Source: Actinophytocola algeriensis (GTDB taxonomy: Bacteria; Actinomycetota; Actinomycetes; Mycobacteriales; Pseudonocardiaceae). Taken from it: 64,000 nt of DNA. This document shows, piece by piece, positions 1-25,523 of the stretch (its first letter is position 1; every line of letters begins with the position of its first letter). Where the stretch lies: contig NZ_JACHJQ010000001.1 of the NCBI RefSeq assembly GCF_014203735.1, positions 1,227,269 to 1,291,268 on the forward strand, read 5' to 3'. The position numbers and the translations under genes are program-made. Below the pieces are notes generated by a model. It ran no database searches, was not told where the DNA came from, and saw only the letters and a program-made list of their open reading frames with translations.

Positions 1-3000
1 TCACCCAGCCCGCGAGCGGGCAGATCCGGCTGACGTGGCACGCGTCGACCGACAACGTGGGTGTGGCCGGGTACGACGTGTACGCCAACGGATCGCTGCG
101 GTCCTCTGTGGACTCCTCGACGCGGGTGTTCACCGACGGCCAGCCCGCCAGCGCGACGGTGTCGTACTTCGTGCGGGCGCGGGACGCGGCGGGCAACCAG
201 TCGCCGAACAGCAACACGGTCACCCGCACCGGCACCAGCGCCGGGGTGAACCTGGCGGTGGGCAGGCCGATCACCGCGTCCGGGCACGTGCACACGTTCG
301 TCGCGACCAACGCGAACGACGACTCGGTGAACACCTACTGGGAGGGCAACAGCGGCTACCCGAACACGCTGACCGTGAACCTCGGCGCGAACGCGGCGAT
401 CACGTCGGTGGTCGTGAAGCTCAACCCGGACCAGTCGTGGGGGCCGCGCACGCAGACCTTCCAGGTGCTGGGCCGCGACCAGGGCGCCACCGGGTTCACG
501 TCGATCGTGGCGTCGCAGCAGTACAGCTTCAGCCCGGCGTCCGGGAACACGGTCACGATCCCGGTGAGCGCGACGGCCGCGGACCTGCGGCTGCAGTTCA
601 CCGCGAACACCGGCGCACCCGCCGGTCAGGTGGCGGAGCTGCAGGTCATCGGCGAGGCGGCCGCGAACCCCGACCTGCAGATCGGCGGGCTCACGTGGTC
701 GCCGGCGTCGCCGTCGGAGAGCAACCCGATCACGCTGTCGGCCACGGTCCGCAACGCAGGTGACCGCCAGTCCCCGGCCACGTCGGTGAACTTCTACCTC
801 GGCAGCACCTCGGTCGGCGTCGCATCCGTCGGCGCGCTCGCCGCCGGGGCCACGGCCACCGTCACCGCGAACATCGGCGGCCGGGACGCGGGCAGCTACA
901 CGCCGAACGCGAAGGTCGACGAGAACAACGCGGTCGTCGAGAAGAACGAGACCAACAACTCCTTCTCGAGCCCGACCCCGCTCGTGGTCACCGCGGTGCC
1001 GACGTCCGACCTGATCGCGTCGCCGGTCAGCTGGTCGCCGTCCACGCCGCAGAACGGTTCGGTCGTGAACTTCTCGGTGGCGATCCGCAACCAGGGCACG
1101 ATCGCGTCGGCGAGCGGTGCGCACGGCATCACGCTGACGGTCACCAACGCCACGACCGGCGCGGTGGTCCGGACGCTGACCGGCGCCGCGAACGGCACGA
1201 TCGCCGCGGGTGCGGCGACGGCACCGGTCGCGCTCGGCACGTGGACCGCCGCGAACGGCCGGTACACGGTGAAGGTGGTGCTCGCGAACGACGCGAACGA
1301 GCTGGCCGCCAAGCAGGGCAACAACACCTCGACGCACAACCTCTTCGTCGGCCGCGGCGCGAACATGCCGTACGACATGTACGAGGCGGAGGACGGCGTC
1401 ACCGGTGGCGGCGCGTCGGTGGTCGGTCCGAACAGGATGGTCGGCGACCTCGCGGGTGAGGCGTCCGGTCGGCGAGCGGTGACGCTGAACGGCAACGGTG
1501 CCTACGTCGAGTGGACCACGCGCGCACCGACGAACACGCTCGTGACCCGGGTGTCCATCCCGGACTCCTCGGGTGGCGGTGGGACCAGCTCGACGTTGAA
1601 CGTCTACGTGAACGGGCAGTTCCACAAGGCGATCAACGTGACGTCGAAGTACGCGTGGCTGTACGGCAACGAGGCAGGCCCGGGCAACTCGCCGGGTGCC
1701 GGTGGACCACGGCACATCTACGACGAGGCCAACGTCATGCTGAACTCGTCGATCCCGGCGGGCAGCAAGATCCGGCTGCAGAAGGACGCGGCGAACAGCG
1801 GCACGTTCGCGGTCGACTTCGTGAGCCTGGAGCAGGTGTCGCCGATCGCGAACCCGGACCCCGCGCGGTACGCGGTGCCCACCGGGTTCGGGCACCAGGA
1901 CGTGCAGAACGCGCTGGACCGGGTGCGGATGGACACCACGGGCAACCTCGTCGGGGTGTACCTGCCGCCGGGTGACTACCAGACGTCGTCGAAGTTCCAG
2001 GTGTACATGAAGCCGGTCCGCGTCATCGGCGCCGGGCCGTGGTACACGAAGTTCGTCGCACCGTCCACACAGGAGAACACGGACATCGGCTTCCGCGCCG
2101 AGGCGTCGGCGAACGGCTCGGTGTTCTCCGGGTTCGCGTACTTCGGCAACTACACGTCGCGCGTCGACGGCCCCGGCAAGGTGTTCGACTTCAACGGCAT
2201 CTCGGGTTCGACCATCGAGAACATCTGGGTCGAGCACATGGTGTGCCTGTACTGGGGCGCGAACACCGACAACATGACGTTGCGGAACAACCGCATCCGC
2301 AACATGTTCGCCGACGGCATCAACATGACCAACGGCAGTTCGGGCAACCTGGTGTCGAACAACGAGTCCCGCGCGACCGGCGACGACTCGTTCGCGTTGT
2401 TCAACGCCCAGGACGGCGGCGGCGGTGAGGTCACGGGCAACACGTTCGAGAACCTGACGTCGATGCTGACGTGGCGGGCCGCCGGGTTCGCGGTGTACGG
2501 CGGGTACGACAACGTGTTCCGGAACCTGCTGGTGGCGGACACGCTGGTGTACTCGGGGATCACGATCAGCTCGCTGGACTTCGGCATCCCGATGAACGGC
2601 TTCGGCGCGTCCCCGCCGACGCGGTTCGAGAACATCTCGGTGGTGCGGGCGGGTGGCCACTTCTGGGGCGCGCAGACGTTCCCGGGAATCTGGGTCTACT
2701 CGGCGACGAAGATCTTCCAGGGCATCCGGGTGTCCGACGTGGACATCGTGGACCCGACGTACCACGGGATCATGTTCCAGACCGACTATGTCGGCGGCCA
2801 GCCACTGTTCCCGGTGGCGGACACGGTCTTCACGAACGTGTCCATCTCCGGGGCGCGCAAGAGCGGTGACGCCTACAACGACAAGTCGGGCTTCGGCATC
2901 TGGGCCAACGAGATGCCGGAGGCGGGCGAGGGCCCGGCCCGAGGTTCGGTGACGTTCAACAACCTGACGCTGTCGAACAACGCGGAGGACATCAGGAACA

Positions 3001-3032
3001 CGACGACCACGTTCACGATCAACAGAAACTGA
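1..3032 (+). CDS. Secreted GH87-family alpha-1,3-glucanase-like enzyme, 5' end missing
   Basis: The reading frame is already open at base 3, so the signal peptide and N-terminus lie upstream of the window. Visible modules, counted from base 3, are a fibronectin III end (1-78), an F5/8-type discoidin domain (82-218), two CARDB-like domains (220-450), a CBM6/35-like domain beginning YEAEDG (458-615) and a right-handed beta-helix (618-1009). The helix carries ADGIN with Asp771 and GDDS with Asp794/Asp795. This 23/24 spacing is the same as that of the three catalytic Asp residues reported for Bacillus GH87 Agl-KA. The likely role is extracellular hydrolysis of alpha-1,3-glucan or mixed fungal alpha-glucan, with the CBM and discoidin modules binding substrate. 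The GH87 assignment is strong from motif spacing; the exact substrate is inferred. Confidence 0.85.
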   Translation, partial: TQPASGQIRLTWHASTDNVGVAGYDVYANGSLRSSVDSSTRVFTDGQPASATVSYFVRARDAAGNQSPNSNTVTRTGTSAGVNLAVGRPITASGHVHTFVATNANDDSVNTYWEGNSGYPNTLTVNLGANAAITSVVVKLNPDQSWGPRTQTFQVLGRDQGATGFTSIVASQQYSFSPASGNTVTIPVSATAADLRLQFTANTGAPAGQVAELQVIGEAAANPDLQIGGLTWSPASPSESNPITLSATVRNAGDRQSPATSVNFYLGSTSVGVASVGALAAGATATVTANIGGRDAGSYTPNAKVDENNAVVEKNETNNSFSSPTPLVVTAVPTSDLIASPVSWSPSTPQNGSVVNFSVAIRNQGTIASASGAHGITLTVTNATTGAVVRTLTGAANGTIAAGAATAPVALGTWTAANGRYTVKVVLANDANELAAKQGNNTSTHNLFVGRGANMPYDMYEAEDGVTGGGASVVGPNRMVGDLAGEASGRRAVTLNGNGAYVEWTTRAPTNTLVTRVSIPDSSGGGGTSSTLNVYVNGQFHKAINVTSKYAWLYGNEAGPGNSPGAGGPRHIYDEANVMLNSSIPAGSKIRLQKDAANSGTFAVDFVSLEQVSPIANPDPARYAVPTGFGHQDVQNALDRVRMDTTGNLVGVYLPPGDYQTSSKFQVYMKPVRVIGAGPWYTKFVAPSTQENTDIGFRAEASANGSVFSGFAYFGNYTSRVDGPGKVFDFNGISGSTIENIWVEHMVCLYWGANTDNMTLRNNRIRNMFADGINMTNGSSGNLVSNNESRATGDDSFALFNAQDGGGGEVTGNTFENLTSMLTWRAAGFAVYGGYDNVFRNLLVADTLVYSGITISSLDFGIPMNGFGASPPTRFENISVVRAGGHFWGAQTFPGIWVYSATKIFQGIRVSDVDIVDPTYHGIMFQTDYVGGQPLFPVADTVFTNVSISGARKSGDAYNDKSGFGIWANEMPEAGEGPARGSVTFNNLTLSNNAEDIRNTTTTFTINRN

Positions 3033-3788: not shown

Positions 3789-6092
3789 TCACACGTGCGG
3801 GACCAGTGCGTAGCCGGTGCTCGATCCGCTGCTGATGCCGCTCACCGCGGGCAGTCCCTCCACCCGCACCGGCGACGTCGCCTTCCCGTCGAAGGGCACC
3901 GAGGGAACGCCCAGTCCGCCGGAGAAGCCCGCGCCCCACGACCACACCGTGCCGTCCGCGCGCAGGGCGTACCCGCCGTAGAAGCGGCTCACGAGCTGCT
4001 CCACGTCGGTGATCGACGCCTGGACCGGCGTCCTGCTGACGCAGTTGAACGGGCCGCAGTCCCCGCCGTCGCCCAGGTCGCCGTTGTAGTCGCCACCCCA
4101 GGCCCACACGGTGCCGTCGGACCGGAGTGCGTACCCGTTCTCCCAGGCGCCCGCGATCGAGGTCACGCCGGTCAGCCCGGACACCTGGACCGGCGCCGTC
4201 TCCACGCACGGCCCGTCCGGGTCGCACTCCTCGCCGTTGCCGAGCTCGCCGACGCCGTTGGTGCCCCAGGCCCAGACGGTGCCGTCACCGCGCAGGGCGT
4301 AGCCGCCCATGGAGCCCCCGGCGATCGCCGTGACACCGGTCAGGCCGGACACCTGGACGGGGACGGTCGAGCCCTCGTCGTAGGTCCCGTCGCCCAGTGA
4401 TCCCCAGCCCGCGCCCCACGCCCACACGGTGCCGTCCGCGCGGAGGGCGTACCCGTTGGCGTACGACGCGGCGCCCGCGATCGCGACGACGTCGGTCAGC
4501 CCGGACACCCGCACCGGGACGTCGGAGTCGGTCTTGGTGCCGTTGCCGAGTTCCCCGCTCCAGTTGCTGCCCCAGGACCAGACCGTGCCGTCGGTCTTCA
4601 GCGCGAACGCGTGGCTACCGCCCGCCGCGATCGCGGTCACCCCGGTCAGCCCGACCACCGGCACCGGCAGGCGGGAGCCGCCGGAGGTCGCGTTGGACCA
4701 GCCGTTGCCGAGTTGTCCCAGGTAGTTGGCGCCCCACGCCCGGACCGTCCCGTCGGCGAGCAACGCGTAGCTGTTGCCGCCGCCGCCGATGACGGACCGC
4801 ACGCCCGACAACCCGACCACCGGCGCGGGCACCGCCGAGTCACCGATACCGCCTGCCGTGCCCAACGGGCCCGCACCCCAGGTGTACACACAGTCGGTCG
4901 TGCAGGGGTCCTCGTCGACCACGACGAACGCCCCGGCCAGGTCGGCCACCAGGTGGATCTTCCCGGCGTGGTTGTAGAGGCTGAAGCTGTGGTCGGACGC
5001 GAACGCGACACCCGCCGCGTTCGCGACGGTCTGACCGGGGGACACGTTCAGTGTCGAGGCGTTCGGGAGGTCGCCGACGGGCTCGGCCGCGGTCACGTAG
5101 GTCCGGGCGGTCGCGCCGACACCGGTGACGTTGAGCAGCACGGCCACCGAGGACGCGGGCACCCGACCTTCGAGGTCGGCGGTGAAGCCGCTCGCGGGTC
5201 CGATCGGTCCGGTCGTGCCGCCGGTGCCGGTGCGGGTGTCGACCACGCGGGCGGGGGTCAGCGGCACGAACGCGGCGCCGTACTCCGGGGAGTAGAAGCC
5301 GGTGACGTCCACGAGGAGGTGGACCGAGCCGACGTGGTTGTAGAGGCTCACCTTCCGGTTCGCACCGACCGCCACCGTGACCAGGTTGGGCCGGATGTCA
5401 CCGGCGTCGGTGTTCAGGCTCGACGCGGTCGGCCGGGTCGTACCCGTGGGCCACGCGGTCACGAACGTCGACGCCGTCGGGCTGACGGCGGTCAGGTTGA
5501 AGGTCACGGCGGTCGCCGAGGCGGGGATCCGGCCGGTCAGGTCGACCGTCCGGGTCGCGCCCGCGCCCAGCGGCCCGCCCGTCGTGCGGGTGTCCAGCGC
5601 CCGGTCGGGGGACAGCGCCGTGAACCCGGCGGTCCCGTCCGTGCCGTAGTGCCCGGCGAGGTCGGCGACCAGGTGCACGCTGCCGCTGTTGTTGTAGAGG
5701 CTGACCTTCCGGTCCGCGCCCAGCGCGACCGTCACCTGGTTCGCGCGCACGTCCCCGGCGACCAGGTTGAGGTTCGACGCGGTCGGCCGCGCGGCGCCCG
5801 CGGGGAAGGCCGTCACGAACGTCGAGGCGGTCGGGGACACGGCCGTCACGTTCAGGACCACGGCGGTCGCGGACGCGGGCACCCGCGCGGTGAGGTCGAG
5901 CGTGACGGTCCGCCCCGCACCGACCGCGCCGCCGCCGGTGCGGGTGTCCAGCACCCGGGTCGGCGACTGCGGCGTGAACGCGGACGCGGGCGCGACCGGG
6001 TCGGCGGCGGGTGCGGCGGACACCGGGTGGCCCGTGAGCAGGAGACCCGCGGCCAGCACGGAACTCAGGACAGCGGGCAGTAGTCGGCGCAT
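3789..6092 (-). CDS. Exported RCC1-repeat protein
   Basis: This is a 767-aa secreted protein with a Sec signal peptide (RRLLPAVLSSVLAAGLLL, cleavage near VSAAPA). Three tandem repeats of about 110 residues follow. Each opens with the pattern P-x-R-V-x-D-T-R-T and ends in SLYN-x-x-G-x-VHLVADL-type sequence, and such repeats are common in actinobacterial surface proteins. The C-terminal half consists of RCC1/BLIP-II-like repeats of about 50 residues built on GVTAIAGG...ALRADGTVWAWG, which should form a seven-bladed propeller. A binding role outside the cell is likely, but the ligand is unknown. ATG at 6092 has the ribosome site GGGGGAG in front. Longer in-frame starts would add a non-signal extension. 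Confidence 0.8.
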   Translation of the reverse strand: MRRLLPAVLSSVLAAGLLLTGHPVSAAPAADPVAPASAFTPQSPTRVLDTRTGGGAVGAGRTVTLDLTARVPASATAVVLNVTAVSPTASTFVTAFPAGAARPTASNLNLVAGDVRANQVTVALGADRKVSLYNNSGSVHLVADLAGHYGTDGTAGFTALSPDRALDTRTTGGPLGAGATRTVDLTGRIPASATAVTFNLTAVSPTASTFVTAWPTGTTRPTASSLNTDAGDIRPNLVTVAVGANRKVSLYNHVGSVHLLVDVTGFYSPEYGAAFVPLTPARVVDTRTGTGGTTGPIGPASGFTADLEGRVPASSVAVLLNVTGVGATARTYVTAAEPVGDLPNASTLNVSPGQTVANAAGVAFASDHSFSLYNHAGKIHLVADLAGAFVVVDEDPCTTDCVYTWGAGPLGTAGGIGDSAVPAPVVGLSGVRSVIGGGGNSYALLADGTVRAWGANYLGQLGNGWSNATSGGSRLPVPVVGLTGVTAIAAGGSHAFALKTDGTVWSWGSNWSGELGNGTKTDSDVPVRVSGLTDVVAIAGAASYANGYALRADGTVWAWGAGWGSLGDGTYDEGSTVPVQVSGLTGVTAIAGGSMGGYALRGDGTVWAWGTNGVGELGNGEECDPDGPCVETAPVQVSGLTGVTSIAGAWENGYALRSDGTVWAWGGDYNGDLGDGGDCGPFNCVSRTPVQASITDVEQLVSRFYGGYALRADGTVWSWGAGFSGGLGVPSVPFDGKATSPVRVEGLPAVSGISSGSSTGYALVPHV

Positions 6093-15150: not shown

Positions 15151-15160
15151 AGGCCCATCC

Positions 15161-15176
15161 GGGTAAACGATTACCC
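15161..15176. promoter_or_regulatory. LacI-family operator-like palindrome
   Basis: GGGTAAACGATTACCC has GGGTAA/TTACCC arms about a central CG, the form typical of LacI-family operators. It lies 51 bp before the first gene of the hydrolase operon and just downstream of its candidate promoter, where a repressor would act. Confidence 0.55.
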
Positions 15177-15227
15177 GTCCGCGTATCGACCGTCCCCTGC
15201 CTCTGCGGTTGATCGAAAGGTGCCTCG

Positions 15228-18200
15228 ATGTCGAGACTCGCCGTCCTGCTTTGTGTTGCCCTCGTCGTCCTCGGGCTCGGGGCACCATCCGTCGCCGAGC
15301 CCCGGGCTGGGAACGGGGTCGTGGGGTGGGACACCTACCGGCGGTTGGATCTCCTCCCCGACCTCGCCGGGGGCTCGCAGACCAAGCAGTTCTCCAGCTT
15401 CGGCCGCAACGGGACCAACGAGGACGGGTTCGTCGGCCGCTACTCCTGCCTGCGCACCAACGGGCCCGGCTGCGTGCTGGCCGAAGACCGGGGGCCAGGC
15501 GAGGTCCAGTCGATCTGGTTCACGCGGGACGAGGGGAACGTCACCGCCACCGGGAACATCCGGATCGTGCTCGACGGGGTCACCGTCCTCGACGCGAGCC
15601 TGCAGCGGGTCGTCGACGGGGACTTCGGCGCACCCTTCGCGTTTCCTCTGGTCACCAACGCCGACCAGACCTCCGGCGGCGTCACCGTCAAGGTCCCGAT
15701 GCCGTACCGGGACTCGATGTTGATCACCACCACCAACAACCCGCTCTTCTACCACGTCGGGTACCGGGAGTTCGCCGACGCCGCCGGAGTGACACGGTTC
15801 AACCCCGCCGACCCGGCCAACGACGTCATCACCCTGCTGCGCAACGCCGGCCGTCAGGACCCCAAGCCCACCCAGCCCGGCGCCACCACCGTCAGCGCCA
15901 CCGTGTCGCCAGGGGCGAACAGCAGCGCGACCATCGCCAACCTCACCGGGCCCGCCGCGGTCACCGCTGTGCGGATCCGGATTCCCGACCACCTCGCCAC
16001 CGAGGCGAACCTCGCCGGCCTGCGGATCCGGGGCACCTTCGACGGACGCTCCACTGTGGACGCGCCACTGGGCGAGTTCTTCGGCGCCGGCCTCGGGGAG
16101 CGGGACGTCCGGTCGCTGATGTTCGCCATGGACGCCGCACCCGGTGGGTGGTACAGCGCCTGGTGGATGATGCCCTACGCGACCAGCGCGACCATCGGCA
16201 TCGCCAACACCACCGGTGCCACCATCAGCGGGATCCAGACCCAGGTCACGCACGCGCCCAACGGCAAGTGGACCACCGAGCTGGCCGCAGGCGGCAACGC
16301 CGGGCACTTCACGACCCAGTCGCGGTCGGGCAACACCACCCAGGCCCGCGACTGGCTGCTCGCCGACCAGTCCGGGCGTGGTCGGTTCGTCGGCGTCACA
16401 CAGACAGTGCGCAATGCCATCGCGGGCGGCAACGAGCGCGGGTACCTCGAAGGCGACGAGCGCGTCCACGTCGACGGCTCCCTCACCCCGCAGTGGCACG
16501 GCACCGGCACCGAGGACTACTACGAGTCCGGCTGGTACTTCAACCGCGGTGAGTACTCCGGTGTGTTCACCGGCAACACCGGGCACCGCGTCCGGACCGG
16601 GGCCTGCGCCGTCGAGTGCGACTCCATGTACCGGCTGCAGATCGGGGACGCGATCTCGTACTCGACCGGGCTGCGGTTCGGGATCGAGCACGGGCCGCAG
16701 AACGACATGCCCGTCGCCGAGAGCAGCACCGCTTTCCTCTACACCAAGCCGCAGCTGGCCAACCGGACCACGGACACGATCATCGTCGGGGACGCCGGTA
16801 GCCGGTCCGCGCACTCCTACACCGAGTCCGGCGCCGCCTCGCAGTACGGGCTGACCAGCGTGTACGAGGGCGACGACGACCACATCGGGGTCACCGACCA
16901 GGTCCGCTCCACCAGCGGTGCCATCAGCTTCCGGCTCGCTGTGGACCCCGCCAACGTAGGCGTGCGCATCAGGCGCTCCAGTGACCAGAACGCCGCCTAC
17001 CAGACCGCCGCCGTCTCCGTCGACGGCGCAGGCGCGGGCACCTGGGTGCAGGCGCTCGGCAACCAGTCGCAGCGCTGGCTCGACGACGACTTCACGGTGC
17101 CGCCGTCGCTGACCGCCGGGAAGTCGAGCATCACCGTGCGGCTCGTGCCCAGTGGACAGGCGTGGACCGCGAGCCGGTACCAGGCGGTCAACCTCGTCGC
17201 GCCGTTCACCGACACCACGCCGCCGAGCGGGGTCGCCACCCCGGCCGTCGGCGGGCGCACGCACGCGGTCGCGTTGAGCTGGCCGCCCGCCACGGACAAC
17301 GTCGGTGTCGCCGCCTACCGCGTGTACGCCTCCACCAACTCGTCCGTGCCGGTCACCGGCGGCAACCTCGTCGGCACCAGCACCACGCCGAGCTTCCGGC
17401 ACGGGCCGCTACCCGCGAACACCACCCGGCACTACCGCGTCGTCGCGGTCGACCGGGCCGGTAACGCCGGGGCCGCCTCGGGTGTGGTCAGTGCGACGAC
17501 CACCACCCCGGTCGGCACCGACGTCAACGGGGACCGGCGCGACGACGCCGTGCTGTTCACGCAGGGGTCGGCGAACGACGTCTTCACCGCGACCTCGACC
17601 GGCAGCGCGTTCGGCAGCCGGGCCAAGGGGCACGACTTCTTCTCGGTCACCGGTGAGGTGCCGCTGACCGGCGACTTCAACGGCGACGGCCGCTCGGACG
17701 TCGTGACCTTCACCCGAGGCGCCGCCGCCGACGTGTACGTCGCGCTGTCCAACGGGACCGGGTTCTCCGGCACGAGTGTGAAGTGGCACGACTTCTTCGC
17801 CGCCGGCACCGAGAAGCCCGCGGTCGGGGACGTCAACGGCGACGGGCGCGACGACATCGTCACGTTCACCTGCGGCAGCGCGGGCGACGTGTACGTGGCG
17901 CTGTCGAACGGGTCGGGCTTCGGGCCGGGCGTCAAGTGGTCGGACAGCTTCTGCATCAACGACGAGCGGCCAGCGGTCGGCGACTTCGACGGCGACGGGC
18001 GGGACGACGTGGTGACCTTCACCGGCGGCACCCGGGGCGACGCGTACGTGTCGCTGTCCAACGGCGGCGCGTTCGTGCAGGAAGGCTGGCTCTGGCACGA
18101 CAACTTCGCGGTCGGCGCGGAGCTGGCCGGTGCCGCGGACGTGAACGGGGACGGGCGCGACGACGTCGTCACGTTCACGCGCGGCACGACCGCCGACGTC

Positions 18201-18455
18201 TTCGTGTCCCTTTCGGACGGTGGCCGGTTCGTGCAGAACGCGTGGCGGTGGCATGACTTCTTCGCCGTCGGCACGGAGCTGCCCGGTCTGGGGGACTTCA
18301 ACGGAGACGGCCGCGCGGACATCGTGACGTTCACCGGCGGCACCGCCGCGGACGCGTTCGTGGCGACCTCGACCGGGAGCGCCTTCCAGGGCACCACGGT
18401 CAAGTGGCACGACGACTTCGGTGCGACCGGCGAGATCCCCCGCCCCACCCTCTGA
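15228..18455 (+). CDS. Exported GH172 (DUF2961) enzyme with FnIII and FG-GAP propeller
   Basis: The 1075-aa protein starts with a Sec signal ([20 protein letters not shown]). A DUF2961/GH172 region of about 600 residues follows, with the family motif GTEDYYESG whose glutamate is Glu429. A fibronectin III domain (664-761) and six FG-GAP/VCBS repeats (765-1075) complete it; each repeat begins with a D-x-(N/D)-G-D calcium loop. Characterised GH172 enzymes are exo-acting on D-fructofuranosides or D-arabinofuranosides, including mycobacterial arabinan. It is first in a five-gene operon, and the next gene starts 19 bp after its stop. Arabinan as substrate is inferred. Confidence 0.85.
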
Positions 18456-18474
18456 GCGACAGGGACGAACACTC

Positions 18475-20013
18475 ATGCGCGCCAAGAGAATCATGGCGGC
18501 CGTGGCCGCGGTCGCCCTCCTCCCGATCACCGCGGGCATCGCCTCGGCGGCACCGCCGGACGGGCCCTCCGCGCCCTGGGCGGACGACACCCCGAAGGCG
18601 AGCCGCATGGCCGCCGGGCCGCGGCCCGACTTCCGGGCGCCGTGGCCGTGCGGGCAGCAACGGCAGTACTACCACCACTCCAGTGAGGTCGTGAACGCGC
18701 TCGACTTCAACCTCGCGGGCGGCGAGGACCTCGGCACCCCGGCGCTCGCCAGCGCGGCGGGCACGGTCGTCGACGTGGTGTCGGGCACCACCGGTTACGG
18801 CAACCACGTGCGCGTCGACCACGGCGGCGGCTGGACCTCGATGGTCGCGCACCTGTCGGCGTTCAGCGTGAGCCGGGGCCAGTACGTGGTCGCTGGTGCC
18901 GAGCTGGGCAAGGTCGGCAGCACCGGCAACTCGACCGGCCCGCACCTGCACTACGAGCAGGAGGCGGACGGGGCGAACCAGCCGATCGTCATCGACGGCG
19001 TCCCGCTCCGCTACAGCTCGTCGATCTCCTACCACACCAGCGGGAACTGCGGTGGCGGCGCGACCACGATGTTCGGCGGCTCGCCCACCGACTTCAACGG
19101 CGACGGCCGCGACGACATCGTCACGTTCAACCAGGGCAGCCTCGCCGACGTGTACGTGGCGCTGTCCACCGGCACCGGGTTCACCGGCACGTCCGTGAAG
19201 TGGCACGACTTCTTCGCACCCGGTGGTGAGACGCCGCTGACCGGCGACTTCAACGGCGACGGCCGCGACGACGTCGTCACCTTCACCCACGGCACGCTGA
19301 ACGACGTCTACGTCGCGCTGTCGAACGGGTCGAGCTTCGGGGCCGGGGTGAAGTGGCACGACTTCTTCGGGCTCGGCGGGGAGATCCCGGCGGTCGGGGA
19401 CGTGAACGGGGACGGCCGCGACGACATCGTCACGTTCACGCGCGGCACCCTCGGGGACGTGTACGTGGCGCTGTCGACCGGCACGTCGTTCGCCGCGTCG
19501 GCGAAGTGGCACGACTTCTTCGCGCTCGGCGGCGAGTTCCCCGCGGTCGGGGACTTCGACGGCGACGGCCGCGACGACATCGTCACGTTCACCCGCGGCA
19601 CCGCCGGGGACGTGTTCGTCGCGCTGTCCAACGGGTCCGCGTTCACCGGCACCACCGTGAAGTGGCACGACTTCTTCGCGCTCGGCGCCGAGCAGCCCCG
19701 CGTCGGCGACTTCGACGGCGACGGGAAGGCCGACATCGCGACCTTCACGAACAACGCGGCCGCGGACGTGTTCGTGGCGACCTCGACCGGCGCCGGGTTC
19801 AGCGGCACCACGGTCAAGTGGCACGACTTCTTCGGTCTCGCCGGGGAGTTCCCGTACGCGGGTGACTTCGACGGCGACGGCGCCACCGACGTCGTGACGT
19901 TCACGCTCGGCTCCCTCAATGACGTGTACGTGGCGCTGTCGAACCGGACGGCCTTCGGGCCGGGCGTGAAGTGGCACGACTTCTTCGGCCTGAACGGCGA
20001 ACGAGTCCTCTGA
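18475..20013 (+). CDS. Exported M23 (LytM-like) peptidase with FG-GAP propeller
   Basis: The 512-aa protein has a signal peptide ([20 protein letters not shown]) and an M23 domain (about 55-190). Its zinc-site residues are visible in YHHSS...NALDFN and GPHLHYE. Six FG-GAP repeats (205-512) follow, all ending near WHDFF. M23 enzymes cut peptide cross-bridges of peptidoglycan. ATG at 18475 has AGGGACG upstream. Being second in the operon, with the same C-terminal module as its neighbours, it probably works with them on one wall target. Confidence 0.9.
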
Positions 20014-20044
20014 GAGAAAACCCTGCAGAGATGAAGGATTCGCG

Positions 20045-21535
20045 ATGATGAGTTGGAGACGCGGCGCGCTCGTGAGCGCTGCCGTGCTGGCCATGACCGG
20101 GATGGGGCTCCCCGCAGCGGCCGCACCGGTCACCGATCCGGCTGCCCCCGGCGACCACGTGCCGCTGTCGGTGGAACCGCTGGCGTGCTCGAGCATCCCG
20201 GCCAACCACGACCCGAACGTGATCAGGGTCGTCTACCAGGTCGGGCTCGACCGCAGCGTGTCGCCGAAGGTCATGCTGGCCGCGTTCGAGGCGGGCTGGG
20301 TCGAGTCGCACATGAACAACCTCAACTGCGGCGACAAGGACTCGCTCGGCGTGTTCCAGCAGCGGCCCAGCCAGGGCTGGGGCACGCCGGAACAGATCAT
20401 GAACGTGTCGTACGCGGCCACGCAGTTCTTCGTCCAGGCGCAGCGCAACGAGCCGCTGTACCCGAACTACACGGCAGGCCTGCTCGCGCAGAGCGTGCAG
20501 CGGTCGTGCTGCCCAGAGCGCTACGACCAGGCCGAGGGCAAGGCCCGCGCGATGATGGACGAGGCGCGCGGTCTCGTCGGCGGTGCGAAGGCGTTCACCG
20601 GCTCGCCGACGGACTTCAACGGTGACGGCCGCGACGACATCGTCGCGTTCAACCAGGGCACCCTGGGCGACGTGTACGTGTCGCTGTCCAACGGCGCGGC
20701 GTTCACGGGCACCTCGGTGAAGTGGCACGAGTTCTTCGCCCCCGCCGGTGAGACGCCGCTGACGGGTGACTTCAACGGGGACGGCAAGGACGATGTCGTC
20801 ACGTTCACCCACGGGTCGCTGAACGACGTGTACGTGGCGCTGTCGAACGGGTCGTCGTTCGGGGCGGGGGTGAAGTGGCACGACTGGTTCGCGCTCGGCG
20901 GCGAGGTGCCCGCGGTCGGTGACGTGAACGGGGACGGCCGCGACGACATCATCACGTTCACGCGCAACAACCTCGCGGATGTCTATGTCGCCTTGTCGAC
21001 CGGCACCTCGTTCGCCGCGTCCGCGAAGTGGCACGACTACTTCGGGCTCGCCGGTGAGGTCCCGGGCGTCGGCGACGTGAACGGGGACGGCAAGGCGGAC
21101 CTCGTGGTGTTCACCAACAACGCGGCGGCCGACGTGTACGTGGCGACCTCCACCGGCACCGGGTTCTCCGGTACGTCCGTGAAGTGGCACGAGTTCTTCT
21201 CGATCGGCGGCGAGTCGCCGCGCATCGGTGACTTCAACGGTGACGGCAGGGCCGACATCGCGACGTTCACCAACAACGCGGCGGGTGACGTGTACGTCGC
21301 GACCTCGACGGGGACCGCGTTCGCGGGCACCACCGTGAAGTGGAACGACTTCTTCGCGCTGGCGGGCGAGTTCCCGTACACCGGCGACTTCGACGGCGAT
21401 GGCAAGGACGACATCGTCACGTTCACGAAGGGCACGCTCAACGACGTGTACGTCGGCGTGTCGACCGGCAGCGGCTTCGCGGGCGGCGCGAAGTGGCACG
21501 ACTTCTTCGGCCTCAACGGCGAGATCACCCTGTGA
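20045..21535 (+). CDS. Exported lysozyme-like (transglycosylase/muramidase) protein with FG-GAP propeller
   Basis: The 496-aa protein has a signal peptide ending near PAAAAPV and a lysozyme-like domain (55-175). That domain contains AGWVESHMNNLNCGDKDSLG and GVFQQRPSQGWGT; Glu87 is the candidate acid catalyst. This motif set occurs in actinobacterial and phage murein-degrading proteins. Six FG-GAP repeats (195-496) follow. GAAGGA precedes ATG 20045 by six bases. Parts of its repeats are almost identical in DNA to those of the next gene. Cleavage of glycan strands is inferred from the fold. Confidence 0.8.
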   Translation: MMSWRRGALVSAAVLAMTGMGLPAAAAPVTDPAAPGDHVPLSVEPLACSSIPANHDPNVIRVVYQVGLDRSVSPKVMLAAFEAGWVESHMNNLNCGDKDSLGVFQQRPSQGWGTPEQIMNVSYAATQFFVQAQRNEPLYPNYTAGLLAQSVQRSCCPERYDQAEGKARAMMDEARGLVGGAKAFTGSPTDFNGDGRDDIVAFNQGTLGDVYVSLSNGAAFTGTSVKWHEFFAPAGETPLTGDFNGDGKDDVVTFTHGSLNDVYVALSNGSSFGAGVKWHDWFALGGEVPAVGDVNGDGRDDIITFTRNNLADVYVALSTGTSFAASAKWHDYFGLAGEVPGVGDVNGDGKADLVVFTNNAAADVYVATSTGTGFSGTSVKWHEFFSIGGESPRIGDFNGDGRADIATFTNNAAGDVYVATSTGTAFAGTTVKWNDFFALAGEFPYTGDFDGDGKDDIVTFTKGTLNDVYVGVSTGSGFAGGAKWHDFFGLNGEITL

Positions 21536-21546
21536 AGGAGTGCGAG

Positions 21547-23583
21547 ATGAGACGACGCTTGGCGGCACTCGGCACCGCGCTGACTGTCGCGGTAGGACTG
21601 ATGAGCGCCCCGACCGCGGCCGCGGCGCCGGAGCAGGGCCCGGTCGGCAGGGCGTTCGCCGCGGCGGCGAGCGAGTTCGACGTGCCCCGCGACCTGCTCG
21701 TGGCCGTCGGCTACGGCGAGACCCACCTCGACGGGCACGGCGGCGAACCCAGCCAGGACAACGGGTACGGCGTCATGCACCTGGTCAGCAACCCGGTTCG
21801 GCAGACGCTCGAGCTGGCGGCGGAGCTGACCGGCGAGTCCTCGGCCGCGCTGAAGAAGGACACGGCCGCCAACATCCGCGGCGGCGCGGCCGTGCTGCGG
21901 TCGATGGCCGACAAGGCCGGGCTGTCGGCGGACGAGCGGAACCGCATCGCCGCCTGGTACCCGGTCGTCGCGCGGTACGGCGGCTCAGGCGACGACGCGG
22001 TCGCGCGACTGTACGCGGACACCGTCTACGAGTTGCTGGCCGACGGCATGCAGGTCCGCACGCCCGACGGTGAACCGGTCGTGGTCAAGCCGTACCCCCG
22101 CGCGCCGGAACGCGGCCGGTTCGAGCAGGTGCGCGAGGACGGCGTGTCCGCGCAGGGCCTGGACTACCCGAACTCGCGGTGGGTGCCCGCGCACGGCGCC
22201 AACTACAGCGCAGGCCGGTCGTCGGCGATCAACCTGATCGTCGTCCACGTGACGCAGGGGTCCTACGCGGGCACGATCAGCTGGTTCCAGAACCCGGCGT
22301 CCGGCGTCAGCGCGCACTACGTCGTGCGGTCGTCCGACGGCGAGGTCACGCAGATGGTGCGCGACGGCGACACCGCATACCACGTGCGGTCCGCCAACTC
22401 GCGTGCCCTCGGCATCGAGCACGAAGGTTTCGTGGACAACCCGTCCTGGTTCACCGACTCGATGTACCGGTCTTCGGCCGCGCTCACGAAGTGGCTGTGC
22501 GAGCGGCACGGGCTGCCGAAGACGCGCCAGTTCATCCAGGGCCACAACCAGATCCCCGGCAACGACCACACCGACCCCGGCCCGCACTGGAACTGGGACT
22601 ACTACATGAGCCTCGTCGGCAGCGGCGGCTCGGCCGGTGTCCACACGGGATCGTCGACGGACTTCAACGGTGACGGCCGCGACGACATCGTCGCGTTCAA
22701 CCAGGGCACGCTGGGCGACGTGTACGTGGCGCTGTCGAACGGCGCCGGGTTCGCGGGCACGTCGGTGAAGTGGCACGAGTTCTTCGCCCCCGGCGGTGAG
22801 ACGCCGCTGACGGGTGACTTCAACGGGGATGGGAAGGACGATGTCGTCACGTTCACCCACGGGTCGCTGAACGACGTGTACGTGGCGCTGTCGAACGGGT
22901 CGTCGTTCGGGGCGGGGGTGAAGTGGCACGACTGGTTCGCGCTCGGCGGCGAGGTGCCCGCGGTTGGTGACGTGAACGGGGACGGCCGCGACGACATCAT
23001 CACGTTCACGCGCAACAACCTCGCGGATGTCTATGTCGCCTTGTCGACCGGTACGTCGTTCGTGGCGTCGGCGAAGTGGCACGACTACTTCGGGCTCGCC
23101 GGTGAGGTCCCGGGCGTCGGCGACGTGAACGGGGACGGCAAGGACGACATCGTGGTGTTCAACCAGGGCACCCTCGCCGACGTGTACGTCGCCACCTCGA
23201 CCGGCACCGGCTTCTCCGGCACGTCGGTGAAGTGGCACGACTACTTCTCCGTCGCCGGTGAGGCGCCGAGGATCGGAGACGTCAACGGGGACGGCAAGGA
23301 CGACATCGTGACGTTCACGCTGAACGCGGCCGCGGACGTGTACGTCGCGACCTCGACCGGCACCGGGTTCACCGGCACCACGGTGAAGTGGAACGACTTC
23401 TTCGGGCTCGGGGCTGAGTTCCCGTACACGGGTGACGCGACCGGTGACGGCAAGGACGACATCCTCACCTTCACCAAGGGCTCGCTGAACGACGTGTTCG
23501 TCGGCGCGTCCACCGGCACCGCCTTCGCGGGCGGCGTCAAGTGGCACGAGTTCTTCGGTCTCAACGGTGAAGTGACCCTGTAG
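21547..23583 (+). CDS. Exported N-acetylmuramoyl-L-alanine amidase (amidase_2/PGRP) with FG-GAP propeller
   Basis: The 678-aa protein has a signal peptide, then a lysozyme-like N-terminal domain (35-155) with GYGETHLDGHGG. A zinc amidase domain (220-365) follows, with His234 in IVVHVTQG, His333 in GHNQIPG and Asp343 in the TDPGPHW motif as likely ligands. Six FG-GAP repeats (375-678) end it. Amidases of this type cut the bond between muramic acid and L-alanine. AAGGAG overlaps the previous stop and is six bases before ATG 21547, which shows tight operon packing. Confidence 0.9.
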   Translation: MRRRLAALGTALTVAVGLMSAPTAAAAPEQGPVGRAFAAAASEFDVPRDLLVAVGYGETHLDGHGGEPSQDNGYGVMHLVSNPVRQTLELAAELTGESSAALKKDTAANIRGGAAVLRSMADKAGLSADERNRIAAWYPVVARYGGSGDDAVARLYADTVYELLADGMQVRTPDGEPVVVKPYPRAPERGRFEQVREDGVSAQGLDYPNSRWVPAHGANYSAGRSSAINLIVVHVTQGSYAGTISWFQNPASGVSAHYVVRSSDGEVTQMVRDGDTAYHVRSANSRALGIEHEGFVDNPSWFTDSMYRSSAALTKWLCERHGLPKTRQFIQGHNQIPGNDHTDPGPHWNWDYYMSLVGSGGSAGVHTGSSTDFNGDGRDDIVAFNQGTLGDVYVALSNGAGFAGTSVKWHEFFAPGGETPLTGDFNGDGKDDVVTFTHGSLNDVYVALSNGSSFGAGVKWHDWFALGGEVPAVGDVNGDGRDDIITFTRNNLADVYVALSTGTSFVASAKWHDYFGLAGEVPGVGDVNGDGKDDIVVFNQGTLADVYVATSTGTGFSGTSVKWHDYFSVAGEAPRIGDVNGDGKDDIVTFTLNAAADVYVATSTGTGFTGTTVKWNDFFGLGAEFPYTGDATGDGKDDILTFTKGSLNDVFVGASTGTAFAGGVKWHEFFGLNGEVTL

Positions 23584-23595
23584 GAGGAGGACGTG

Positions 23596-25470
23596 ATGGG
23601 CAAGGGGCTGCGCCTGCTGGCGCTCGTGCTCGTGCTGACCGGGCTCGTGGCGGCGCCCGCGGGTGCGGCCCCGGCGCCACCGACGGTGTCGGCGGGCAAC
23701 TTCATCCGCGTCTACGACCCGTCGGTCGGGGAGTCGGCGCAGTGGTACTACAACGACCACACGCTCGTCCGGGACGTGGTCACCGGCACCTGGCACGTGT
23801 ACGCGATCACGCACGCCGAGCCGGCGAACCCGTTGGACGAGAAGAACTTCGGGCACGCGACCGCGCCGTCGCCGAACGGGCCGTGGACCAAGCGGCCGTT
23901 CGCGCTGACGGCCGACCCGGCGCTCGGCGAGAGCCACATCTGGGCGCCGCACGTCATCCACCACAACGGCGTCTACTACATGTACTACGCGGCCGGGACC
24001 CCGGACCACGCCGCGTACCGCATGCACCTCGCGACCTCGACCGACCTGAACACCTGGACCCGCAGCGCGGCGAACCCGCTGTTCACCGACGGGTTCGACG
24101 CCCGCGACCCGATGGTCACGCGGGTCGGGCCGACGTGGGTCATGTACTACACGGCGAACAGCACCCCGACCGGCGGCAACCACCAGGTCGCGTACCGGAC
24201 GTCGACGGACCTCGTGCACTGGAGCGGCAAGCAGGTCGCGTTCTCCCACCCGGCGTCCGGGACGTTCGGCGGTCCGACGGAGTCGCCGTTCGTGATCTTC
24301 CGCGGCGGCTGGTGGTACCTGTCGATCTGCTGCGACGCCGGGTACAAGGACACGCGCGTGTACCGCAGCCGGGACCCGTTCCGCTTCTCGGTGAACGACC
24401 TGGCGGGCCGGATCGACGCGCACGCGGCGGAGATCGTGACGGAGCCGTCCGGCGCGACGTGGGTGACCGGCGCCGGGTGGGGGCAGGGCGGACTGCACGT
24501 GGCGCCGCTGTCGGTCAACTCGTCGTACGCAAACGTTTTCGTGGGTGGTGGCGGCGCGGACTTCAACGGCGACGGCCGCGACGACGTGGTGACGTTCACG
24601 CACGACCCGCTGGCGGACGTCTATGTCGCCCTGTCCTCCGGGTCCGGTTTCACGGGCACGTCGGCGAAGTGGCACGACTGGTTCGCGTTGTCGGGCGAGA
24701 CCCCGCTGACCGGTGACGTCAACGGGGACGGCAAGGACGACATCGTGACGTTCACGCACGGTTCGCTCGCGGACGTCCACGTCGCCCTGTCGACCGGGTC
24801 CGCGTTCGCGGGCGCGGCCAAGTGGCACGACTTCTTCGCCATCGACGGCGAGGTGCCCGCGGTCGGTGACGTGAACGGGGACGGTCGCGACGACATCATC
24901 ACGTTCACGCGCAACAACCTCGCGGATGTCTATGTCGCCTTGTCGACCGGCACGTCGTTCGCGGCGTCGGCGAAGTGGCACGACTTCTTCGGCATCGCGG
25001 GCGAGTCACCGGGCGTGGCGGACGTGAACGGCGACGGGCGCGACGACATCGTGACGTTCACGCACGGCTCGTCGGCGGACGTGTACGTGGCGCTCTCGAA
25101 CGGTTCGTCGTTCGGTGCGTCGGCCAAGTGGCACGACTCGTTCGCGGCGGGCCTCACGGACCCCCGGCTGGGTGACGTGAACGGCGACGGCAAGGCGGAC
25201 GTCGTCCAGTTCAGCCGCGAGGGCGTGGTCCACGTGGCACTGTCGTCCGGTACGTCGTTCGGCACTTCGCGGAAGTGGCACGACTTCTTCGCGCCACAGG
25301 GCGAGTTCCCGTACGTGGGCGACTACGACGGCGACGGCCGCACGGACATCGTGACGTTCACGAAGCTGCCGGGCGCGGACACGTACGTCGCGCTGTCGAC
25401 CGGCACGGCCTTCGGCCCGGGCCCGAAGTGGCACGACTACTTCGGCCTCCCCGGCGAAACCACGCTGTAG
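23596..25470 (+). CDS. Exported GH43-like glycosidase with FG-GAP propeller
   Basis: The 624-aa protein has a signal peptide ([20 protein letters not shown]) and a five-bladed GH43/GH32-clan domain (30-310). Candidate catalytic residues are an N-terminal aspartate (Asp41 in VYDPS or Asp54 in YNDHT), Asp170 in FDARDPMV and Glu228 in [10 protein letters not shown]43 enzymes release arabinofuranose, xylose or galactofuranose residues. Six FG-GAP repeats follow. ATG 23596 sits five bases after AGGAGGAGG; GTG 23593 is too close to it. It is last in the operon and followed by a strong terminator. The sugar specificity is unknown. Confidence 0.8.
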
Positions 25471-25476
25471 GACGAC

Positions 25477-25511
25477 GGCCACCGCGGGCTGGGCGACAGC
25501 CCGCGGTGGCC
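25477..25511. terminator. Strong terminator of the hydrolase operon
   Basis: A perfect 14-bp stem (GGCCACCGCGGGCT / AGCCCGCGGTGGCC) with a 7-nt loop starts six bases after the last stop. It also lies at the 3' end of the convergent minus-strand ORF. Confidence 0.75.
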
Positions 25512-25523
25512 GAGCTCCGTGGC

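What the first reader, a model, noticed from the sequence alone, without database searches (positions are those of the whole stretch)
15228..25470. Five-enzyme operon with one shared propeller: a candidate wall-dissolving system against arabinan-bearing bacteria
Seen: five consecutive exported proteins (GH172, M23 peptidase, lysozyme-like, amidase_2, GH43-like) with gaps of 9-31 bp. Each ends in the same six-unit FG-GAP/VCBS module of about 300 residues with calcium-loop motifs, and one terminator closes the set. Known: GH172 enzymes cut D-arabinofuranosides, including mycobacterial arabinan. M23, lysozyme and amidase folds cut the three bond types of peptidoglycan, and GH43 enzymes cut furanosides. 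Inference: the set is a kit that strips arabinogalactan and dissolves the murein of mycolic-acid bacteria, with the common propeller as the targeting or docking part. It may serve predation, competition or remodelling of the producer's own wall.
Basis: partly seen in the sequence, partly recalled or inferred. Interest (0 to 1): 0.85.

Follow-up and report, generated by a model that had tools for sequence, protein, structure and literature searches.

The report
Lectin-tagged enzymes for eating arabinan walls
A soil actinomycete carries an operon of five secreted enzymes with the same sugar-binding propeller; its control site and relatives suggest they dissolve and feed on the walls of bacteria covered in D-arabinose chains, such as relatives of mycobacteria.

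Summary
In detail: five exported proteins (GH172; M23; lysozyme-like; Amidase_2; GH43/32-like) lie 9-31 bp apart, each ends in a six-unit FG-GAP propeller, and a strong hairpin follows. The propeller is of the PVL/UmbA beta-propeller lectin type: its best solved match is UmbA4 bound to a wall glycan. New evidence from outside the coordinates: (1) a LacI-type palindrome, GGGTAAACGATTACCC, lies 50 bp upstream; it is the genome's only exact copy of the 14-base core. The four one-mismatch copies flank a GH116 gene (two), precede a transporter/GH172-paralogue operon, and precede another sugar transporter; a weaker copy lies between a FucI-type isomerase and a lacI gene. GH172, GH116, importer, isomerase and kinase make up the known D-arabinan utilisation cluster. 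(2) Relatives keep GH172+propeller but swap the murein hydrolases; in one genome a GH183 endo-D-arabinanase-family gene stands in for GH172. (3) EmbABC and AftA were not found in the genus (0 of 6 genomes), so its own wall is an unlikely target. Best reading: a sugar-controlled scavenging or predation system that strips D-arabinan and dissolves murein of other actinobacteria. No activity was tested.

The parts
15160..15177 (.). LacI-type palindromic operator CGGGTAAACGATTACCCG, 50 bp before the ATG of A
   Evidence: only exact copy of the 14-base core in the genome; also before A in G001 (2 mismatches), G002, G005 and G014
15228..18455 (+). A: exported GH172 (DUF2961) exo-D-arabinofuranosidase candidate + C-terminal propeller (about 17517-18455)
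   Evidence: the two catalytic Glu (aa 408 in EGDE, aa 429 in GTGTED) are kept
18475..20013 (+). B: exported M23 peptidase candidate (Pfam match 18730-18972) + propeller (about 19084-20013)
   Evidence: HH..ALD and HxH conserved in 8 aligned rows
20045..21535 (+). C: exported lysozyme-like helical domain (about 20213-20578) + propeller (about 20606-21535)
   Evidence: E82 and E87 invariant in 9 rows
21547..23583 (+). D: exported N-terminal lysozyme-like stretch (by eye, GYGETHL; no Pfam hit), Amidase_2 (22222-22584) and propeller (about 22654-23583)
23593..25470 (+). E: exported five-bladed GH43/GH32-clan furanosidase candidate (about 23686-24522) + propeller (about 24553-25470)
   Evidence: D55, D172, E230 invariant in 15 rows
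25476..25512 (+). 16-bp G+C hairpin, probable terminator without a U-tract

Best explanation
The operon is the extracellular attack part of a D-arabinan utilisation regulon. A LacI-family repressor that senses a pentose or arabinan product (inferred) controls it through the operator at 15160-15177, together with a GH116 gene, a second GH172 gene, sugar ABC importers and a FucI-type isomerase (an FGGY kinase gene overlaps the isomerase gene). The five secreted enzymes carry the same Ca-loop beta-propeller lectin, which holds them on a wall glycan of the target cell (inferred from fold and relatives). GH172 removes alpha-D-arabinofuranose; E trims another furanoside (beta-D-Araf cap or galactan, undecided). 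M23, the lysozyme-like domains and the amidase open the murein. Released pentose is imported and metabolised. The likely food or prey are other actinobacteria with arabinogalactan walls. Shown here: gene content, propeller kinship, catalytic residues, operator sharing, recurrent linkage, no EmbABC/AftA found in the genus. Inferred: substrate, effector, ligand, which LacI binds, and ecology.
For: GH172 match with both catalytic Glu (residue roles from PMC10115798 passages). Operator: one exact copy in 9.73 Mb, before A; the four one-mismatch copies flank GH116 (two), precede the ABC/GH172-paralogue operon, and precede a Peripla_BP_4 sugar-type ABC transporter; the GH116 search was made after the operator search. 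0 places with <=3 mismatches in 261,901 bases of the same-genus and G014 loci outside the tested promoters. Weaker copies between isomerase and lacI in G000, G001, G003 (3 mismatches) and G002 (4), and before E in G001 (2), G005 (3), G014 (3); good copies just before GH172 genes of Herbihabitans and two Amycolatopsis (L069, L118, L119). In G002 the last gene of A-C-D meets the importer genes without a gap. In Micromonospora L056 GH172-propeller and GH43 are followed by an FGGY kinase and a gene weakly like FucI. Swapped murein hydrolases: glucosaminidase and CHAP in G205, G271, G293 (Pfam run on G205, the G293 locus by BLAST, G271 by its near-identical gene layout); GH183 13 bp behind lysozyme-like+amidase in G021. 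Propeller fold: 9oee UmbA4-glycan E 3e-17, PVL 2e-13. EmbABC and AftA in 0 of 6 genus genomes; EmbABC in 3 of 17 named bearers.
Against: No activity, binding or expression was measured. Some bearers do have EmbABC-type genes: 3 of the 17 named genomes (Lentzea kentuckyensis, Amycolatopsis anabasis, Herbihabitans), and G014 and G021, so the cassette is not confined to producers without it. The genus members' GH183 genes lack the operator. GH172 also includes alpha-D-fructofuranosidases (alphaFFase1). 12 of 25 GH172+propeller genomes show no propeller-bearing murein hydrolase in the stretch seen. E cannot be placed below clan level. Three one-mismatch operator copies (G001:C28, G004:C1, G005:C45) lie beside genes with no evident link.
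Confidence: 0.66

Rival explanations
1. Weapon rather than meal: the set is secreted to kill competing actinobacteria, and sugar uptake is a by-product.
For: The same propeller family sits on a 4108-aa RHS/PT-HINT polymorphic toxin and on trypsin-like proteins with UmbA-like architecture; UmbA propellers target toxins to rival Streptomyces (PMC13274773, passages and section 12).
Against: The operator regulon consists of glycosidases, importers and catabolic genes; the five proteins have no toxin domain; catabolic linkage recurs in Micromonosporaceae.
Confidence: 0.17
2. Self-remodelling: the enzymes trim the producer's own wall during growth, sporulation or lysis.
For: G013 (Herbihabitans), G014, G021, Amycolatopsis anabasis and, with a weaker match, Lentzea kentuckyensis bear both EmbABC-type genes and parts of the cassette; actinomycetes use murein hydrolases in development (general knowledge).
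Against: EmbABC and AftA in 0 of 6 genomes of the genus; no EmbABC in 14 of 17 named bearers (one is a MAG); control by a LacI-type site shared with sugar uptake.
Confidence: 0.08
3. Another polymer: GH172 and E act on alpha-D-fructofuranosides or on a non-arabinan furanose glycan of other bacteria, fungi or plants.
For: GH172 contains alphaFFase1; E scores with both GH43 and GH32 and its fold matches GH32, GH43 and GH117 enzymes.
Against: Co-regulation with GH116 and a FucI-type isomerase fits D-arabinose, not fructose; GH183 beside C-D in G021; murein hydrolases point to bacterial walls.
Confidence: 0.09

Closest known systems
D-arabinan utilisation locus of Microbacterium arabinogalactanolyticum (PMC10509167, passages seen)
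   Same: GH172, GH116, sugar ABC importer, isomerase and kinase together; induced there by D-arabinose and by a mycobacterial preparation called MCE
   Different: There the two exo-enzymes have no signal sequence and the extracellular enzymes are GH183; the words peptidoglycan and lysozyme do not occur in its main text. Here GH172 is exported, propeller-tagged and in an operon with murein hydrolases; the importer's binding protein is Peripla_BP_4, there SBP_bac_8
Umbrella toxin UmbA lectins of Streptomyces (PMC13274773 section 12 and passages; PMC11062931 passages)
   Same: C-terminal FG-GAP-type beta-propeller; UmbA4 (9oee) is the best solved match by sequence and fold
   Different: No trypsin-like domain among the five proteins; here the propeller carries hydrolases, not toxin spokes
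PVL/PAL mushroom lectins
   Same: Propeller fold, Foldseek E 2e-13 and 8e-13
   Different: Seven-bladed by recall; six units here; ligand not tested
GH172 and GH183 enzymes of Mycosynbacter amalyticus and Dysgonomonas gadei (PMC10115798, passages seen)
   Same: D-arabinan enzymes linked to predation on, or feeding from, acid-fast walls
   Different: No shared lectin propeller or murein-hydrolase operon in the passages seen

Membership tests
GH172 (protein A) | DUF2961 domain with two catalytic Glu | tested here: met
   PF11175 202.5 bits against cut-off 27; EGDE and GTGTED motifs aligned with 8ah3 and 4kq7
GH172 (protein A) | alpha-D-arabinofuranosidase activity | not testable with these tools
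   needs assay
Peptidase M23 (protein B) | zinc ligands H..D..HxH | tested here: inconclusive
   PF01551 84.1 bits against 28.7; Asp of ALD and HxH kept; the first His is not at the HxxxD spacing (recalled motif) but in an upstream HH pair conserved in all 8 aligned rows
Lysozyme-like / GH184 (protein C; the GH184 label is recalled) | helical fold and catalytic Glu of the muramidase family | tested here: inconclusive
   weak match 8b2h E 0.0014; helical domain modelled with stretches under pLDDT 50; the fold search listed only propeller-type matches; E82/E87 invariant
Amidase_2 (protein D) | Amidase_2 domain with zinc His/His/Asp | tested here: met
   PF01510 111 bits against 26; VVHVT and GHNQIPGNDHTDPG motifs found (ligand roles recalled)
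GH43 (protein E) | five-bladed fold with Asp/Asp/Glu triad | tested here: met
   PF04616 50.4 bits against 32.2, but PF00251 also passes; D55, D172, E230 invariant in 15 rows; fold matches GH32, GH43, GH117, so subfamily open
PVL/UmbA-type propeller lectin | fold | tested here: met
   9oee E 3e-17, 4up4 E 2e-13
PVL/UmbA-type propeller lectin | glycan-binding residues and binding | not tested
   UmbA4 W668/Y551/N633 were not mapped
Umbrella toxin | trypsin-like UmbA domain, UmbB, ALF-repeat UmbC | tested here: not met
   no trypsin domain in the five proteins; UmbB and UmbC were not searched
D-arabinan utilisation locus | GH172 + GH116 + importer + isomerase/kinase under common control | tested here: met
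   shared operator, Pfam; control itself not measured
D-arabinan utilisation locus | GH183 in the same locus or regulon | tested here: not met
   GH183 present at G000:C2 without operator; beside C-D homologues in G021
D-arabinan utilisation locus | induction by D-arabinose | not testable with these tools
   needs expression data

The most novel reading that the evidence does not exclude
A bacterial wall-eating system not seen in the papers searched: murein hydrolases built into a D-arabinan catabolic regulon and all aimed by one lectin propeller, whose copies on the lysozyme-like and amidase proteins are kept alike within a species by gene conversion, so that the whole kit tracks the wall glycan of a local prey. 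E would be a decapping beta-D-arabinofuranosidase of GH43/32 type that stands in for GH116 in the sister species where no GH116 was found (G001, G002, G005).
Probability: 0.35. Interest if true: 0.85.

Novelty: new variant of a known kind. Interest (0 to 1): 0.76.

Why it matters
It joins two things so far described apart: D-arabinan utilisation loci and lectin-targeted wall attack. If true, it gives a set of secreted enzymes and a binding module for arabinogalactan-peptidoglycan, the core of mycobacterial-type walls, and makes it testable whether soil actinomycetes feed on one another's walls. It also offers a family of propellers whose natural ligand can be sought directly.

Tried and rejected
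Self-remodelling as lead reading: rejected for this genus on the EmbABC and AftA searches. I could not confirm the wall sugars of the genus from print (searches listed no paper on them; none was opened), so the absence rests on genes.

Propeller as docking part of an umbrella-like particle: rejected for lack of a trypsin-like domain in the five proteins.

Strict separation of cassette and arabinan makers: does not hold, some bearers have EmbABC.

GH183 as a member of the regulon: tested and not found in G000, G001, G005 (best 6, 4 and 8 mismatches).

Sigma-70 promoter scan: nothing found. Placement of UmbA4 sugar-contact residues on the propeller: given up, chain numbering unknown. GH43 subfamily: not resolvable with the libraries at hand. 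The operator at G021 (3 mismatches) lacks the central CG and is not counted as evidence. In two fetched loci (L045, L046) my gene caller did not recover the propeller gene, so they were left out.
Full report
What is there. The five genes and gaps are as described. Family searches give GH172/DUF2961, M23, Amidase_2 and GH43 (with GH32N also passing), each with FG-GAP_3 repeats; protein C has no catalytic Pfam hit and only a weak link to 8b2h/8b2e. Protein D carries a second lysozyme-like stretch before its amidase (by eye; no Pfam hit). The propellers have six units, mostly of 51-52 residues, and those of B-E are 55-61% identical to that of A. A strong G+C hairpin follows E.

Active sites. A keeps the glutamates that match E233 and E254 of DgGH172c (alignment to 8ah3, residue roles from passages of PMC10115798, positions; the register was counted by hand). 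E keeps D55, D172 and E230 in all 15 aligned rows (their reading as base, modulator and acid is from general knowledge of GH43). B keeps HxH and the Asp of the metal site, but its first His lies in an unusual upstream pair, conserved in all 8 aligned rows.

The propeller. By sequence the only solved relatives found are 9oee and 8w20, both labelled 'Secreted esterase'; titles 9oee as UmbA4 with bound S. griseus glycan, and 8w20 is taken from recall as the Umb1 particle (the code occurs in PMC11062931). By fold the model of C (mean pLDDT 70.5) matches UmbA4 (E 3e-17) and the mushroom lectins PVL and PAL. The UmbA4 paper (section 12 and passages) shows that propeller sites bind wall glycopolymer and that single changes there strongly impair the toxin. 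The same propeller family occurs on trypsin-like proteins and on a 4108-aa RHS/PT-HINT protein. Hence a wall-glycan lectin is the best reading; the ligand is unknown.

Relatives in the genus. Contig-length matching to one search suggests the genus is Actinophytocola (G001 = A. gossypii). Of 6 genomes held, 4 have the orthologous GH172: G000 A-B-C-D-E; G001 A-B-C-D with E elsewhere; G005 A-C-D with E elsewhere; G002 A-C-D with E divergent beside it. So the five-gene order is not fixed, but A, C, D and E are kept in all four.

Concerted evolution. Propellers of A and of E group by orthologue, while those of C and D pair within G000, G001 and G005 (tree; supports 91/97, 95/99, 87/84; not in G002). 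Within six genomes C and D propellers show 22-38% differences at fourfold sites; C or D orthologues of different genomes show 40-54% in the ten pairs computed. In G002 the effect is weak (amino-acid identity 0.79 within, 0.80 to the nearest orthologue). Gene conversion between the neighbouring copies is the simplest account; it implies a common ligand.

Wider relatives. In 297 genomes of the family, 39 have a propeller match at E<=1e-40: 4 of the genus and 35 others, of which I fetched loci from 19 and left 16. GH172+propeller stands with M23 and lysozyme-like genes in G014, and with glucosaminidase+propeller and propeller+CHAP in G205 and G293 and, by matching gene layout, G271. In G021 the lysozyme-like and amidase propeller genes are followed after 13 bp by a DUF4185/GH183 gene, the endo-D-arabinanase family. 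Over both sets (duplicates removed), 13 of 25 genomes with GH172+propeller have a propeller-bearing murein hydrolase in the stretch seen, 2 more a hydrolase gene cut by a contig end; the other 10 do not (several stretches end at contig ends). GH172 and the E type are fused in one ORF in two Kribbella genomes and one Nakamurella genome, without the propeller.

Regulon. Upstream of A lies CGGGTAAACGATTACCCG (15160-15177), also found before A in G001, G002, G005 and G014. A genome-wide search for its 14-base core, one mismatch allowed, gave 5 places in G000 and none for the reversed control. They are: the window operon (the only exact one); C13, before an ABC-transporter/GH172-paralogue operon; two places on C4 that turned out, in a later search for GH116, to flank the genome's only GH116 match; and C1, 357 bp or less before a Peripla_BP_4 sugar-type ABC transporter. 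In G003 the only place lies before a GH116 gene that is split over several frames. Copies with 3-4 mismatches to the 16-mer lie between a FucI-type isomerase and a lacI gene in G000, G001, G003 (3) and G002 (4), and copies with 2-3 mismatches before E in G001, G005, G014 and before a GH43-GH59 pair in G001. Background: 0 places with <=3 mismatches in 261,901 bases of the same-genus and G014 loci outside the tested promoters; 38 in 1.79 Mb of other loci, some of them directly before GH172 genes (L069, L118, L119) and some not. In the loci fetched later, two further 3-mismatch places lie in or behind the split GH116 gene of G003. Against: three one-mismatch places in G001, G004, G005 have no evident link, and the GH183 genes lack the site. 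The consensus was drawn from the A promoters, so their own scores are not independent; those of GH116, GH172 paralogue, transporters, isomerase/lacI and E are.

Meaning of the regulon. GH172, GH116, a sugar importer, an isomerase and a kinase are parts of the D-arabinan locus of Microbacterium arabinogalactanolyticum (passages of PMC10509167). In G002 A-C-D continues into the importer genes. In Micromonospora L056 GH172-propeller and GH43 are followed by an FGGY kinase and a gene weakly like FucI (just below the Pfam cut-offs); L054 has genes of the same lengths there, not scanned; in Asanoa genes follow that look like an ABC importer from their starts only. FucI-type isomerases act on L-fucose and D-arabinose (general knowledge).

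Self or foreign. EmbABC (PF04602) was found in 0 of 6 genomes of the genus and in 205 of 297 of the family; AftA (PF12249) in 0 of 6. Of 17 named GH172+propeller genomes 3 have EmbABC. So most bearers examined do not make this arabinan by the known route. The published wall sugars of the genus could not be checked.

Novelty. Listings of searches for GH172 with arabinan, with peptidoglycan, DUF2961 with propeller, FG-GAP with peptidoglycan hydrolase, arabinogalactan with predatory/lytic terms, D-arabinan with arabinofuranosidase since 2023, and propeller lectin with amidase showed no paper on such an operon (open-licence full texts only). I rate it a new variant of a known kind: a D-arabinan utilisation system extended by lectin-tagged murein hydrolases.

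Noticed in passing
G237 L051:3392-15718; G210 L052:1-11187: Giant propeller-bearing proteins: the 4108-aa one in L051 has RHS repeats and a PT-HINT domain (polymorphic toxin); the one in L052 is of similar size and was not scanned.
   Followed up: partly
L034, L038, L043, L068: Trypsin-like proteins fused to the same propeller (UmbA-like architecture) in several genera; the one in L068 lies directly upstream of a GH172+propeller gene in Amycolatopsis anabasis.
   Followed up: no
G001 L030:2114-7625: A GH43-like protein without propeller followed by a GH59 + F5/8 + propeller protein, with a 3-mismatch copy of the operator upstream.
   Followed up: partly
G001 L021:3209-6525: Two secreted GH18 proteins with CBM2 or CBM4_9 and Fn3 domains downstream of the operon; proteins with similar starts lie at the same place in G005 (L022, not scanned).
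   Followed up: no
window 3-3032: Alpha-1,3-glucanase-type protein (CatAgl domains, CARDB, F5/8), cut by the window's start.
   Followed up: no
window 3789-6092: Protein with a signal-like start and RCC1 repeats, another propeller type.
   Followed up: no
G003 L153:5372-8552: GH116 gene split over several frames (pseudogene or assembly error) behind an exact 14-base operator core.
   Followed up: no
G021 L033:4227-5651: Chondroitinase-B-like beta-helix protein next to the GH183 gene in the lysozyme/amidase propeller cluster.
   Followed up: no
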